Assembly (NCBI RefSeq): GCF_014284235.1
Contig: NZ_JACOGD010000002.1
Coordinates: 124,001-188,000 of the forward strand
Direction of reading: 5' to 3'
Length of the DNA: 64,000 nucleotides
Source of the DNA: Cognatundibacterium curvum
Lineage (GTDB): Bacteria; Pseudomonadota; Gammaproteobacteria; Burkholderiales; Burkholderiaceae_D
Every line of letters begins with the position of its first letter. The first letter of the stretch is position 1. Below, one piece after another: positions 17,758-21,678 of this stretch. Below the pieces are notes generated by a model, which saw nothing but the letters and a program-made list of their open reading frames with translations, ran no database searches and was not told where the DNA came from. Both the position numbers and the translations under genes were made by a program.

Positions 17758-17876
17758 GGTATTTCGCCGTAGGCCAACGGCTGTGGCTGGCCTTGAGCGC
17801 ATTGACGCTTGCATGTCCTGAACCCTATCCGGCGCATATCGCCTACAATCAGGATTTTTCTTTGCCGGAGTTTGTG

Positions 17877-18515
17877 ATGAGTTTTGCCACCTGGTTTGCC
17901 TTTGTCATTGCCGCTTGCGTGATCGCGATTTCGCCGGGTTCCGGCGCTGTATTATCCATGTCGCATGGTCTGAATTACGGTGTGCGCCGTACCAGTGTCA
18001 CCATTATGGGTTTGCAGGCCGGTTTGCTGATGATACTGGCGATTGCCGGTGCTGGCGTGGGTTCTATCTTGCTAGCCTCTGAACTGGCATTCAGCATTGT
18101 CAAGGTGGTTGGTGCTTTGTATCTGATCTATCTGGGCTGGATGCAATGGCGTACCCGCGTCACACAGGGCATGCTGCAAGATGCGGCTGACAAGGTGGTG
18201 CCCTCTGTGAGACGCCGCTTTCTGACCGGCTTTCTGACCAATGCGACCAATCCTAAGGGCATCATTTTTATGGTGGCCGTGTTGCCGCAATTCATATCGC
18301 AACAGGCGCCGCTGTTACCGCAACTCCTTATACTGGCTGTGACTATGTGCACGGTAGACCTGATTGTCATGCATAGCTATGCATTTGCTGCTTCCGGGGC
18401 GCAAAAGTATTTCCGTGATGAGCGCTGGCTGCAGAGGCAGAACCGTTTTTTTGGCGGCATACTGATGGCGATCGGCGCTGCGCTGTTCTTTGTGAAACGT
18501 AGTCCGGCAAACTGA
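17877..18515 (+). CDS. LysE/RhtB family amino acid exporter
   Basis: A 212-residue inner-membrane transporter with about six hydrophobic segments. The family signature ISPGSGAVLSMSHGLNYGVRR follows the first span, and FLTNATNPKGIIFMVAVLPQF is the conserved mid-protein motif. The substrate, an amino acid or derivative, cannot be read from the sequence. ATG 17877 has GGAG 9 bases upstream; the longer frame upstream is rejected. Confidence 0.92.
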   Translation: MSFATWFAFVIAACVIAISPGSGAVLSMSHGLNYGVRRTSVTIMGLQAGLLMILAIAGAGVGSILLASELAFSIVKVVGALYLIYLGWMQWRTRVTQGMLQDAADKVVPSVRRRFLTGFLTNATNPKGIIFMVAVLPQFISQQAPLLPQLLILAVTMCTVDLIVMHSYAFAASGAQKYFRDERWLQRQNRFFGGILMAIGAALFFVKRSPAN

Positions 18516-18586
18516 ACAGCTATCCCACACAGACGGCAGCTCACTTTGTTGGGTTGCCGCCTTTGTTTCTCCGCTTTGACTTGAAT

Positions 18587-19387
18587 TTACTCGCTTAAAG
18601 GGATGCCCTGCTTTTTGGCCAGCGCATCAATGTCCTGCCAGATGGTCATCTGATTCAGTAAGCGGCTGGCCGGGTCTATCATGGCTGCCAGATTAAAGAA
18701 GCGTTCCAGCGAGGTCTCGTCAAAATTCATGGATTGCGAAAAATTAATGCGGCCGTATTGTTTGTGAAATGCATGCAGCAAATCGGCTGGCGCATCTTTA
18801 TGCCATGCCTGCATTAAACCACCTACCATCAGTGCGCAGTCGGTAGTTTGTTCCAGACTGCGTGCACTGCGTGCCGTAGCGACATCGCGGAAGTCCAGCA
18901 GACGCGGGAAGAACACCTGGCGTACCCAGCTGGCCGGAATGCCATCCGGGCGCTGCAGACTGGCGCTGCGCCAGTATTTCCAGCTCTTTTCCGTCTCGTG
19001 CGCAGCGACAAACTGCGGATCGGCCAGCAGCAGGCAGTCTTCACCCAGTTCTATATCCAGTACCACTGGCAAGCCCGCCTGATGGCCTATGTCATCCACA
19101 CCGGCCAACACAGGCTTACTGCCTTTCTGTTCCTGCAGCGCGTTGACAAAAGCGCCCATCACTTCGGCGTGTTGCTGATGTAATTCGCTGGTATTTTTGC
19201 AAAATGCAGCACAGGCGGCGTAATAAGCCATTAATTCGCCGACGAAAATTCCGCCACTCAGGTGGTGATTTTCCAGTCCCAGGCGCTGGGTGTCATGGCT
19301 GATACCCTGGCGTAGTATGGTGTACAGCTGATTCGTGGTGCAGCCAAACTTTACTTTGCTGCCAGCAGCAAGTCTGAATTCGCTCAT
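18587..19387 (-). CDS. Conserved-looking protein of unknown function, coupled to arsC-like gene
   Basis: A 266-residue, apparently soluble protein that I do not recognise. It has no signal peptide or membrane span. Trp and acidic residues are frequent and the C-terminal part (after about residue 165) looks helical. Its ATG overlaps the stop of the upstream ArsC-like gene (ATGA), so the two are translated together. Function might relate to the thiol/reductase partner, but that is only context. Confidence 0.72.
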   Translation of the reverse strand: MSEFRLAAGSKVKFGCTTNQLYTILRQGISHDTQRLGLENHHLSGGIFVGELMAYYAACAAFCKNTSELHQQHAEVMGAFVNALQEQKGSKPVLAGVDDIGHQAGLPVVLDIELGEDCLLLADPQFVAAHETEKSWKYWRSASLQRPDGIPASWVRQVFFPRLLDFRDVATARSARSLEQTTDCALMVGGLMQAWHKDAPADLLHAFHKQYGRINFSQSMNFDETSLERFFNLAAMIDPASRLLNQMTIWQDIDALAKKQGIPLSE

Positions 19388-19752
19388 GGATTTACTTTCT
19401 GAAATAAGCCGAGCGCGAGCTCGGGTGGACGTGCGATGACAGCCTGTCCACGATAGCTGACGATAGGTCGCTGTAATAATTTAGGGGTGGTCACGATGGC
19501 TTGCAGCGCGCGCAAACTGTCTGCGTCCGCCAGGCTGGCGGCACTGTACTCCTCTTCATTCGGGCGCAACATCGCTTGTACATCGCCACCTAGCTGTGTG
19601 AGCAGCGTTTGTAACTGCTCCAGTGTCAGTGGCGTCTTTTGGTAGTCGATGACTTCCAGGCTTAATTGCTGTTCACTTGCGATCTGTTCTAGCAGAGCCA
19701 GTGTTTCGCGTGATTTGGAGCAACGTGGATTATGGTAGAGCTGTATCATCAT
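19384..19752 (-). CDS. ArsC/YfgD family arsenate reductase-like protein
   Basis: A 122-residue thioredoxin-fold protein. The N terminus LYHNPRCSKSRETLALL carries the single active-site Cys11 of the glutaredoxin-coupled ArsC family, followed by the Arg in MLRPNEEEY and the RPIV...ARPPE segment with two further Arg residues. It resembles YfgD more than plasmid ArsC, and no ars operon genes are nearby, so arsenate reduction is not certain. It overlaps the unknown gene downstream by 4 bases and lies 17 bases after the TMEM165-like gene on the same strand, so all three could be one transcript. Confidence 0.87.
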   Translation of the reverse strand: MMIQLYHNPRCSKSRETLALLEQIASEQQLSLEVIDYQKTPLTLEQLQTLLTQLGGDVQAMLRPNEEEYSAASLADADSLRALQAIVTTPKLLQRPIVSYRGQAVIARPPELALGLFQKVNP

Positions 19753-19768
19753 TATTCTTTAGCATTCT

Positions 19769-20341
19769 TTACAGAAAACGGTCACCGGCACCTGCCAGTA
19801 CCAGGCAACCAAGCACGGCGAATACAGTTGCGGCGATCCAGCGTACCAGCTTAAACGGAAAATTAGGTGACGCCACTTTACCCAAAAACACTGCCGGTAC
19901 GTCGGCAATCAGCATGCCCAGCGTCGTGCCCGCAATGACGCTGAGCAGCGCTTCATACTTTGCTGCCAGTGCGACTGTGGCGAGCTGGGTTTTATCGCCC
20001 ATTTCAGCCAGGAAGAAAGTCACACAGGTCAGTAAAAAGACGCCGTAGCGGCCATCCTGGATGCCCTCATCATCCATGTCGTCCGGCTTTAAAGTCCAGG
20101 CTGCAATAGCGATAAATGAGAGTCCCAGTCCCCAGCGTAACCAGTCTGCAGGTATATGGCTGGCTACCCAGCTACCAATTAACCCGGCCAGCGCATGGTT
20201 GGCCAGAGTTGCGACCAGTATCCCCAAAATAATGGGGGCAGGTTTTTTATACCTCGCTGCCAGTAACAGCGCAAGCAATTGGGTTTTATCGCCGATTTCA
20301 CCGACGGTGACAGCGAGTGCAGAGACGAAAAATGCTTCCAT
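19769..20341 (-). CDS. TMEM165/GDT1 (UPF0016) family manganese exporter
   Basis: A 190-residue inner-membrane transporter with six hydrophobic segments and the two inverted-repeat signature motifs EIGDKTQ (near residue 15) and EMGDKTQ (near residue 115), which form the cation site. Bacterial relatives such as Vibrio MneA export Mn2+. The gene is preceded by a yybP-ykoY manganese riboswitch on the same strand, which independently supports manganese export. The downstream arsC-like and unknown genes may be in the same transcript. Confidence 0.93.
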   Translation of the reverse strand: MEAFFVSALAVTVGEIGDKTQLLALLLAARYKKPAPIILGILVATLANHALAGLIGSWVASHIPADWLRWGLGLSFIAIAAWTLKPDDMDDEGIQDGRYGVFLLTCVTFFLAEMGDKTQLATVALAAKYEALLSVIAGTTLGMLIADVPAVFLGKVASPNFPFKLVRWIAATVFAVLGCLVLAGAGDRFL

Positions 20342-20414
20342 GAGTATATTTGGGACGGGGCGGACTGGCCAATGACAGCAGCACGCCGCCCCATCCCTGG
20401 AAACGCCATGCGAC

Positions 20415-20526
20415 TATCAAAGGTCTTGCGAAATCCACGCATAATCGCAGATCCGGCGCACCATGACGAACCCGTCAAGTATGTTGATGCGCCGTCTTCA
20501 GCTGGGCTGAAGCTGGCTACTCCCCA
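20415..20526 (-). ncRNA. yybP-ykoY (manganese) riboswitch
   Basis: Read on the minus strand, the leader contains GGGGAGTAGCC, a stem-loop (CTTCAGCCCAGCTGAAG), the ATCAACATACT segment, ATGGTGCGCC and GCAAGACCTTTG, the conserved blocks of the yybP-ykoY Mn2+ riboswitch in the right order. The AUCAACAUAC and GCAAGACC blocks are the metal-sensing loops. A TATAAT -10 element (20543-20548, minus strand) lies a few bases upstream of the GGGGAG. The aptamer ends about 75 bases before the transporter ATG; high Mn2+ should raise expression of the exporter. Confidence 0.9.
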
Positions 20527-20548
20527 ATGATTGAGAGCGCGCATTATA

Positions 20549-20922
20549 GCTCAGGCGATCAGTCTCGCATGGAAAAAATCAAACACTGTTGTGCCTGGCG
20601 TAAGCATGAAAATGTCGCAACTAATTAGCTTTTTTCGCTTGTAAGCAGGATTTTAAATTTGGCTTGTTGATATTGTAGCCTGCAAGAAAACTGGGCACTT
20701 ATTTCTCTAAGTCATTGCTATAAAAGGGGATTGGAGAGAGCGGGTGCTTACATATAGATGAAATTCTTGCTCGTCAGCTTAGCTTTTACATAGTGTGTAC
20801 AACGCAGTGGCGGTACTGTCCAGGGTTGTGCAAATCTGGCCTTACACCGTTGTGGGCGTGGAAAGTGTCATGTCATGAAATAGGGGGTGATACACTGAAA
20901 TTCTATAAATTATTTTATCCGG
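20549..20922. other. Intergenic region without a recognised gene
   Basis: About 370 bases between the riboswitch promoter and the MgtC gene. It is A/T-richer than the neighbours. I looked for an M-box magnesium riboswitch or a leader peptide in front of mgtC and did not recognise one. A TATAAAAG stretch near 20720 could be part of a promoter but has no convincing -35. Confidence 0.5.
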
Positions 20923-21678
20923 ATGTGCAAAGTGGATGTCTATCTGAATCATTTCATGAGCTTTTGGTCGGCAGCAGAGATTAATGCGAATCTGATCATT
21001 TTTCTCAATATTTTCGGCGCGATGCTGCTGGGATTTGTGGTGGGCTATGAGCGTTCCTACCATGGCAGGGCAGCGGGAATGCGCACATATGGACTGGTGT
21101 GCATGGCCTCGGCTGCGCTGGTCGTCATTGCTGGCTATCCTGACTTCTGGTTTGGCGGCAGGGCGCTGGCACCGATGAATCTGGATCCTTCACGCACTAT
21201 CCAGGGCATAGTCACTGGCATAGGCTTTCTGGGTGCGGGTGTGATCATGAAGGAAGGTTTCACGATCAGCGGGCTCACCACGGCAGCCTCGGTCTGGGCC
21301 TCATCGGCCATCGGTATCCTGGTTGGCGTAGGCTTTTATGCCGCTGCGATACTGCTGGCGCTGTTGTCTGCTGCCTGTATGGTTTGGGTGCATAAACTGG
21401 AAGCCTGGTTACCTGCCCGTGCTGCGATTGCTATCACCCTGCGTTTTCAGCCCGGCGTGCAGCCGGACGAGACAGATTTGATCGCTATGGCGGAGCGGCA
21501 TGGGTATGAACTGGCTGAAGGCACGCTCGCGATTGCTATGCAGGCAGGCTGTGCAGAATGGCGCTTTGTCGCTGTTGCGCTGGACCGTCGCTCTGCCAGC
21601 CCGCTGGCTGTACTTTCCCATGATTTTCAGCAAAAACCGTACATAGACTCCTTTCAGCTCAATCACGCGAGAAATTAA
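20923..21678 (+). CDS. MgtC/SapB family membrane protein
   Basis: A protein of about 251 residues with a hydrophobic N-terminal half (five spans) carrying the MgtC signature LLGFVVGYERSYHGRAAGMRTYGLVC and GIVTGIGFLGAGVIMKEG plus GLTTAASVWASSAIGILVG. The soluble C-terminal 85 residues resemble the ACT-like tail of longer MgtC proteins. In pathogens MgtC affects F-type ATPase and low-Mg2+ survival; here only the family can be stated. The start is unsure: ATG 20923, GTG 20932 or ATG 20956, none with a strong ribosome site. Confidence 0.88.
   Translation: MCKVDVYLNHFMSFWSAAEINANLIIFLNIFGAMLLGFVVGYERSYHGRAAGMRTYGLVCMASAALVVIAGYPDFWFGGRALAPMNLDPSRTIQGIVTGIGFLGAGVIMKEGFTISGLTTAASVWASSAIGILVGVGFYAAAILLALLSAACMVWVHKLEAWLPARAAIAITLRFQPGVQPDETDLIAMAERHGYELAEGTLAIAMQAGCAEWRFVAVALDRRSASPLAVLSHDFQQKPYIDSFQLNHARN

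What the first reader, a model, noticed from the sequence alone, without database searches (positions are those of the whole stretch)
19384..20548. Manganese riboswitch controls a TMEM165-type exporter, with an ArsC-like gene downstream
The leader shows the conserved yybP-ykoY blocks and a TATAAT just upstream. This ties the UPF0016 transporter to Mn2+. The arsC-like gene (17 bases on) and an unknown gene coupled to it may be Mn-induced too, which would suggest a link between manganese and the thiol partner.
Basis: partly seen in the sequence, partly recalled or inferred. Interest (0 to 1): 0.55.

Follow-up and report, generated by a model that had tools for sequence, protein, structure and literature searches.

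The report
Manganese riboswitch before a manganese exporter
An ordinary manganese-sensing RNA switch sits in front of a manganese-exporter gene in Undibacterium; the gene that regularly follows the exporter is not the arsC-like one but an undescribed protein that may have an ADP-ribosyltransferase-like fold.

Summary
RF00080 (yybP-ykoY, Mn2+) matches 20537-20431 (-) at 63.7 bits (cut-off 45), the only copy in the genome. It precedes a GDT1/UPF0016 exporter gene, an ArsC-family gene and a 266-aa ORF. A riboswitch before a UPF0016 gene is the rule in bacteria, so that part is ordinary.

The proposed manganese-thiol link is weak: in the 37 of 43 Undibacterium genomes that have the exporter, ArsC lies behind it in 21, the unknown ORF in all 37. 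Yet the ORF persists in 4 genomes without the exporter, one of them keeping arsC beside it.

The ORF's model (pLDDT 89.7) has no Foldseek match at E <= 0.001, but all 50 listed VIA rows are ADP-ribosyltransferase-superfamily folds, at middling Z (best 6.6). The histidine expected from a recalled motif is absent in 35 of 35.

The leader carries a covarying helix that copies the aptamer's 5' strand and competes with P1, and a second helix before a start codon without Shine-Dalgarno sequence. How that sets expression is unresolved.

The parts
20543..20548 (-). TATAAT, likely -10 box
   Evidence: sequence; TATAAT before the aptamer in 26 of 27 leaders
20414..20537 (-). Mn2+ riboswitch aptamer (yybP-ykoY); Rfam hit 20537-20431 plus the conserved 3' strand to 20414
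   Evidence: RF00080 63.7 bits; conserved 3' strand in the leaders
20524..20530 (-). UCAUUGG, 5' strand of helix P1, first copy
20407..20419 (-). 5' strand of helix A; its first bases are also the P1 3' strand
   Evidence: covariation
20373..20385 (-). 3' strand of helix A; runs into the second copy of UCAUUGG (20375-20369)
   Evidence: 245 of 264 cells paired in 22 leaders, 9 of 12 pairs with changes on both sides
20386..20397 (-). 5' arm of helix B
   Evidence: register fitted per sequence
20352..20363 (-). 3' arm of helix B, ends 10 bases before the start codon; no T run and no Shine-Dalgarno-like tetramer after it
19769..20341 (-). GDT1/UPF0016 (TMEM165/MneA-type) Mn exporter, 190 aa
   Evidence: PF01169 4.3e-45; two ExGDKT motifs
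19384..19752 (-). ArsC-family gene, 122 aa; optional member of the operon
   Evidence: PF03960 9.2e-12; TIGR00014 92.3 bits, below its cut-off 106.05; between exporter and ORF in 21 of 37 genomes
18587..19387 (-). ORF of unknown family, 266 aa; behind the exporter in every genus genome that has the exporter; possible ADP-ribosyltransferase-like fold
   Evidence: no Pfam or NCBIfam match; 41 of 43 genus genomes; 37 of 37 with exporter; model pLDDT 89.7, VIA rows

Best explanation
A standard manganese-responsive riboswitch turns on a UPF0016/GDT1 manganese exporter. Proposed switching: without Mn2+ the aptamer's P1 helix is open and its 3' strand is taken by a second copy of the 5' strand further down (helix A), which also prevents helix B; with Mn2+ P1 closes, helix A is lost, helix B forms just before the start codon, and the exporter is expressed. 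The arsC-like gene and the 266-aa ORF lie close behind and are most likely read through from the same promoter. Shown by comparison or computation: the aptamer, the exporter family, helices A and B and their mutual exclusion, and the gene order. Inferred: that Mn2+ gives the ON state (from the known family), that helix B permits expression, and that the two downstream genes are co-induced.
For: RF00080 over cut-off, only copy in the genome, directly before the exporter in 31 of 37 exporter-bearing Undibacterium genomes. Exporter PF01169, the only GDT1 gene of the genome, with no MntP match. Helix A: 245 of 264 cells paired (93%), 9 of 12 pairs changed on both sides in 22 leaders; slid controls 15-53% and 3-6 pairs. 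Helix B: 191 of 198 cells paired, 9 of 9 pairs changed on both sides, slid controls 37-59% and 1-5 pairs, but its register was chosen per sequence. Forcing three P1 pairs gives a mean of 14.4 expected B pairs, forcing three A pairs gives 0; without ligand the A state is the more stable in 17 of 22 leaders, by 4.5 kcal/mol on average over all 22. A review states that 328 of 333 screened strains with a UPF0016 gene have it under yybP-ykoY and that V. cholerae mneA is induced by Mn2+ (PMC7380456, passages read).
Against: No expression data. In the window's own leader, and in 4 others of 22, P1 is predicted more stable than A even without ligand (window -89.0 against -84.2). One leader (L059) gets only 3.7 expected B pairs with P1 forced, and one (L060) was fitted with a B ending 2 bases before the start codon rather than 9-12. 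Accessibility of the start region does not clearly differ between the states: higher with P1 in 10, with A in 5, of 22, so the read-out is not explained. No Shine-Dalgarno-like tetramer in 27 of 27 leaders. In 6 of 37 genomes the exporter has no riboswitch over the cut-off before it, and the two conserved aptamer blocks searched for are absent from all six of those leaders.
Confidence: 0.82

Rival explanations
1. The arsC-ORF pair is not functionally part of the manganese response: it sits behind the exporter by history, has its own transcription or needs only low read-through, and serves another role.
For: The ORF persists without the exporter in 4 genomes (G571, G578, G587, G589); the last three show no RF00080, no exporter and no close ArsC, and no conserved aptamer block upstream of the ORF. 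In G571 arsC and the ORF remain at the locus while the riboswitch stands before a Na/Ca-exchanger-family gene elsewhere. A hairpin with a T run separates exporter and arsC in L074, and weak terminator-like hairpins are listed near both junctions in the window.
Against: The ORF follows the exporter on the same strand in 37 of 37 genomes that have it; 16-base gap and 4-base overlap in the window.
Confidence: 0.35
2. One reading: the ArsC-like protein is a thiol-redox partner of manganese handling, kept under the Mn switch for that reason.
For: Close spacing in the window and ArsC (at least 53% identity) between exporter and ORF in 21 of 37 genomes.
Against: Absent there in 16 of 37, of which 14 have only more distant ArsC-family genes (33-43% identity) elsewhere and 2 (G584, G586) have no match; patchy on the ORF tree by eye.
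Confidence: 0.08
3. The switch works on transcription: helix B is an intrinsic terminator, or helix A exposes a C-rich Rho site, rather than acting on translation.
For: Helix B is GC-rich and conserved; its C-rich 3' arm is free of B when A is forced.
Against: No T run after helix B in the leaders read and no terminator-like site listed there on the minus strand. B forms in the P1 (Mn-bound) state, which would make it an OFF switch if it were a terminator. The Rho variant is not tested.
Confidence: 0.3

Closest known systems
yybP-ykoY Mn2+ riboswitch (RF00080)
   Same: Aptamer over the curated cut-off; before a Mn-exporter family gene
   Different: Leader carries a second copy of the P1 5' strand and helix B, and no Shine-Dalgarno-like tetramer before the start; a like copy and helix are seen by eye in other Burkholderiaceae leaders too, so the copy is not peculiar to this genome
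MneA of Vibrio (UPF0016/GDT1, TMEM165-type)
   Same: PF01169, two ExGDKT motifs, riboswitch-linked
   Different: Followed by an ORF found, as far as searched, only in Undibacterium and related MAGs, and often by arsC
ArsC-type reductases (PF03960, TIGR00014)
   Same: Family match and the HNPRCSKSRET stretch (its role recalled)
   Different: Below the TIGR00014 equivalog cut-off; the six neighbouring genes given to Pfam include no other ars gene
KptA/Tpt1 and DarT (ADP-ribosyltransferase superfamily), for the 266-aa ORF
   Same: Most of model residues 1-160 superpose on the C-terminal lobe of KptA: Z 6.6, rmsd 2.5-2.9, 88-96 residues; DarT1 Z 5.7 over 131
   Different: No sequence match; the KptA rows begin at about chain residue 83-90, so its N-terminal lobe is not matched; the residue expected to be the NAD histidine is F, Y, V or L in 35 of 35 (motif recalled)

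Membership tests
yybP-ykoY riboswitch RF00080 | covariance-model score over the gathering cut-off | tested here: met
   63.7 against 45 bits
yybP-ykoY riboswitch RF00080 | Mn2+ binding and Mn2+-dependent expression | not testable with these tools
   needs in-line probing or a reporter
GDT1/UPF0016 | PF01169 match and E-x-G-D-[KR]-[TS] motifs | tested here: met
   4.3e-45; EIGDKT and EMGDKT in the translation; motif as given in the PMC7380456 abstract
GDT1/UPF0016 | Mn2+ transport | not testable with these tools
   needs a transport or tolerance assay
ArsC family PF03960 | Pfam gathering score | tested here: met
   45.6 against 24 bits
glutaredoxin-dependent arsenate reductase (TIGR00014) | equivalog cut-off 106.05 bits | tested here: not met
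   92.3 bits
ADP-ribosyltransferase superfamily (266-aa ORF) | ART fold | tested here: inconclusive
   model pLDDT 89.7; Foldseek best E 0.30, none <= 0.001; VIA 50 of 50 listed rows ART by title and recall, Z 4.1-6.6, under the tool's caution level of 8
ADP-ribosyltransferase superfamily (266-aa ORF) | NAD-contacting histidine in the first strand | tested here: inconclusive
   position 14 is F 22, Y 5, V 5, L 3 of 35, never H; the position itself is placed by a recalled motif
ADP-ribosyltransferase superfamily (266-aa ORF) | NAD+ binding or transferase activity | not testable with these tools
   biochemistry

The most novel reading that the evidence does not exclude
The 266-aa ORF founds an undescribed, genus-confined branch of ADP-ribosyltransferase-fold proteins without the usual NAD histidine, which most Undibacterium express from a manganese riboswitch operon as a manganese-stress effector or as a metal- or RNA-binding partner of the exporter.
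Probability: 0.12. Interest if true: 0.6.

Novelty: new member of a known kind. Interest (0 to 1): 0.33.

Why it matters
The riboswitch-exporter unit lets manganese handling be predicted for Undibacterium, a genus for which no paper in the searched library holds its name together with manganese and riboswitch. The more useful lead is the conserved third gene: its linkage to the exporter, and the four genomes that keep it without the exporter, give a natural comparison with which to find its role.

Tried and rejected
Sequence searches for relatives of the 266-aa ORF: none in Pfam at E up to 10 for 11 members, none in NCBIfam for the window protein, only chance-level PDB sequences (best E 0.25), none in viral contigs (57 stretches matched a pattern, none confirmed), none in 184 same-family genomes of other genera (single protein) or in the 368 other genomes drawn from the class (profile). 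The genome-contig scan used two short C-terminal patterns and could miss distant relatives; its 32 loci are named Undibacterium, or are MAGs named Oxalobacteraceae, Burkholderiaceae or Burkholderiales.

Mechanism by start-codon sequestration: tested by forcing P1 or A; no clear difference. Free folds of many leaders pair the aptamer's GGGGAGU with the start of the coding region, but not that of the window, so it was not adopted.

A single gain of arsC: the tree routine compared the arsC rows only with the three no-exporter rows, so its count of 1 says little. By eye arsC is confined to one half of the tree and patchy there (one gain with several losses, or about three gains). G571 is not in that tree.

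Rows dropped: 5 near-identical leaders of 27 before the covariation and state counts, leaving 22; the alignment held 24. Of the 30 best RF00080 loci outside the genus, 28 with a GDT1 hit were read; the other two (L017, L022) were not. Of the 32 loci, 24 were given to Rfam searches; the other 8 are the same contigs as loci already searched. In those 32 loci GDT1 is beside the ORF in 29; the other 3 have no GDT1 in the genome.

Papers: PMC7380456 and PMC13274385 were seen as search listing and passages; all others only as search listings.

Full report
Observation. The Rfam Mn2+ riboswitch RF00080 matches the minus strand at 20537-20431 with 63.7 bits (gathering score 45; E 2.2e-14 for the whole window). 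It is the only copy found in the 4.25-Mb genome. TATAAT lies directly upstream at 20548-20543. Downstream on the same strand come a 190-aa GDT1/UPF0016 protein (PF01169 4.3e-45), a 122-aa ArsC-family protein (PF03960 9.2e-12) after 16 bases, and a 266-aa protein without any Pfam or NCBIfam match whose start overlaps the arsC stop by 4 bases. The genome has no other GDT1 gene and no MntP match.

The host. In named genomes the 266-aa ORF was found only in Undibacterium and in MAGs named Undibacterium, Oxalobacteraceae, Burkholderiaceae or Burkholderiales (32 loci); the closest is U. crateris at 97% identity.

Gene order in the genus. Four searches over the 43 held genomes of the genus, tallied: the ORF is in 41, GDT1 in 37, RF00080 in 33. 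In 37 of 37 genomes with GDT1 the ORF lies downstream on the same strand, directly or with arsC between. A close ArsC (at least 53% identity) lies between them in 21 of 37. RF00080 stands directly before GDT1 in 31 of 37. The leaders of the other six were checked: all six have a TATAAT 98-218 bases before the gene, none has either of the two conserved aptamer blocks searched for.

Exceptions. The ORF occurs without GDT1 in four genomes: G571, G578, G587 and G589. For three of these, reached as L078, L067 and L081, a whole-genome search for PF01169 was empty while two other genomes in the same search were positive. In G571 arsC and the ORF remain together at the old locus, GDT1 is gone, and the riboswitch stands before a Na/Ca-exchanger-family gene (PF01699 2.3e-29) on another contig. 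In G594 GDT1 and the ORF lack the riboswitch, and a borderline RF00080 (45.0 bits) stands before an MntP gene (PF02659 2.1e-50). In these two genomes the riboswitch goes with a cation or manganese exporter gene, not with arsC or the ORF.

The leader. Twenty-seven Undibacterium leaders were read. The aptamer's 3' strand GCAAGACCTTTGATAG lies beyond the Rfam end in the window and is conserved. Further down is a second copy of the P1 5' strand (UCAUUGG; two copies by a simple pattern in 24 of 27). It can pair with the P1 3' strand (helix A). In 22 leaders, 5 near-identical ones dropped, helix A has 245 of 264 cells paired and 9 of 12 pairs with changes on both sides; sliding the 3' strand by 1-3 bases gives 15-53% and 3-6 pairs. 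A second helix, B, ends 9-12 bases before the start codon in 21 of 22 (2 bases in L060); its register was chosen per sequence, so its 96% (slid controls 37-59%) is partly by construction. A and B interleave: forcing P1 gives a mean of 14.4 expected B pairs, forcing A none. A has the lower free energy in 17 of 22, but not in the window's own leader. None of 27 leaders has a Shine-Dalgarno-like tetramer at -18 to -4, against 11 with one among 28 leaders of other Burkholderiaceae genera; those show a like copy and helix by eye (the copy by a looser pattern in 23 of 28). Start-region accessibility does not separate the two states. The read-out is therefore open; Mn2+ giving ON is taken from the known family.

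Junctions. The terminator scan of 18300-21000 lists 9 terminator-like sites (shuffles 3.0, sd 1.8), among them weak minus-strand hairpins at 19800-19783 and 19424-19409, near the exporter-arsC and arsC-ORF junctions. U. terreum has a hairpin with a T run between exporter and arsC. Co-transcription is therefore likely but not shown.

The 266-aa ORF. AlphaFold with 11 sequences gave pLDDT 69.1, with 35 sequences 89.7 and pTM 0.90. Foldseek against the PDB has no match at E <= 0.001 with either model; the best are KptA/Tpt1 tRNA 2'-phosphotransferases at E 0.12 and 0.30, and both lists also hold unrelated folds such as proteasome subunits. VIA-align's second look, which aligns only chains that Foldseek ranked, lists 50 rows for each model; by their titles, and by my recall for the Tre toxins and for a holotoxin row, all 50 are ADP-ribosyltransferase-superfamily proteins in both lists, best Z 6.7 and 6.6. 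The tool warns that Z under 8 may mean only a common arrangement, so the fold is a lead. The residue that by a recalled motif should be the NAD histidine is F, Y, V or L in 35 of 35, so an ordinary transferase is unlikely.

Known background. A review gives 328 of 333 screened strains with a UPF0016 gene as having it under yybP-ykoY, and Mn2+ induction of V. cholerae mneA (PMC7380456, passages). In Vibrio parahaemolyticus mneA and terC lie behind this riboswitch and are Mn-induced; yrbG is given as under it in V. vulnificus (PMC13274385, passages). A search for yybP-ykoY with arsenate reductase found one review on Bacillus metal detoxification (search listing only); one for Undibacterium with manganese and riboswitch found none.

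Verdict. The riboswitch and exporter are real and ordinary. The arsC link is not supported as a rule. The conserved unknown ORF and the copied P1 strand are the parts worth following.

Noticed in passing
L074 5547-5608: In U. terreum a GC hairpin followed by a T run lies between GDT1 and arsC, an apparent intrinsic terminator.
   Followed up: partly
L090 2742-3872 (-): In G571 the Mn riboswitch stands before a Na/Ca-exchanger-family gene while GDT1 is missing from the genome search.
   Followed up: partly
L092 2899-3582 (-): In G594 a borderline RF00080 (45.0 bits) stands before an MntP gene, and GDT1 has none.
   Followed up: partly
L067 1-279, L080 1-324, L052 1-3170: In part of the genus the locus lies directly behind an rRNA operon (5S or LSU matches), while in the window and its nearer relatives a divergent MgtC gene and tRNA-tuf genes are upstream.
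   Followed up: no
window 17758-17792; L043 861-2447: An HDOD-domain gene lies between the TPR/response-regulator gene and the LysE-type gene in L043 but not in the window.
   Followed up: no
L070 5654-6000: A 347-base stretch with an inverted-repeat look lies between GDT1 and the ORF in one MAG.
   Followed up: no
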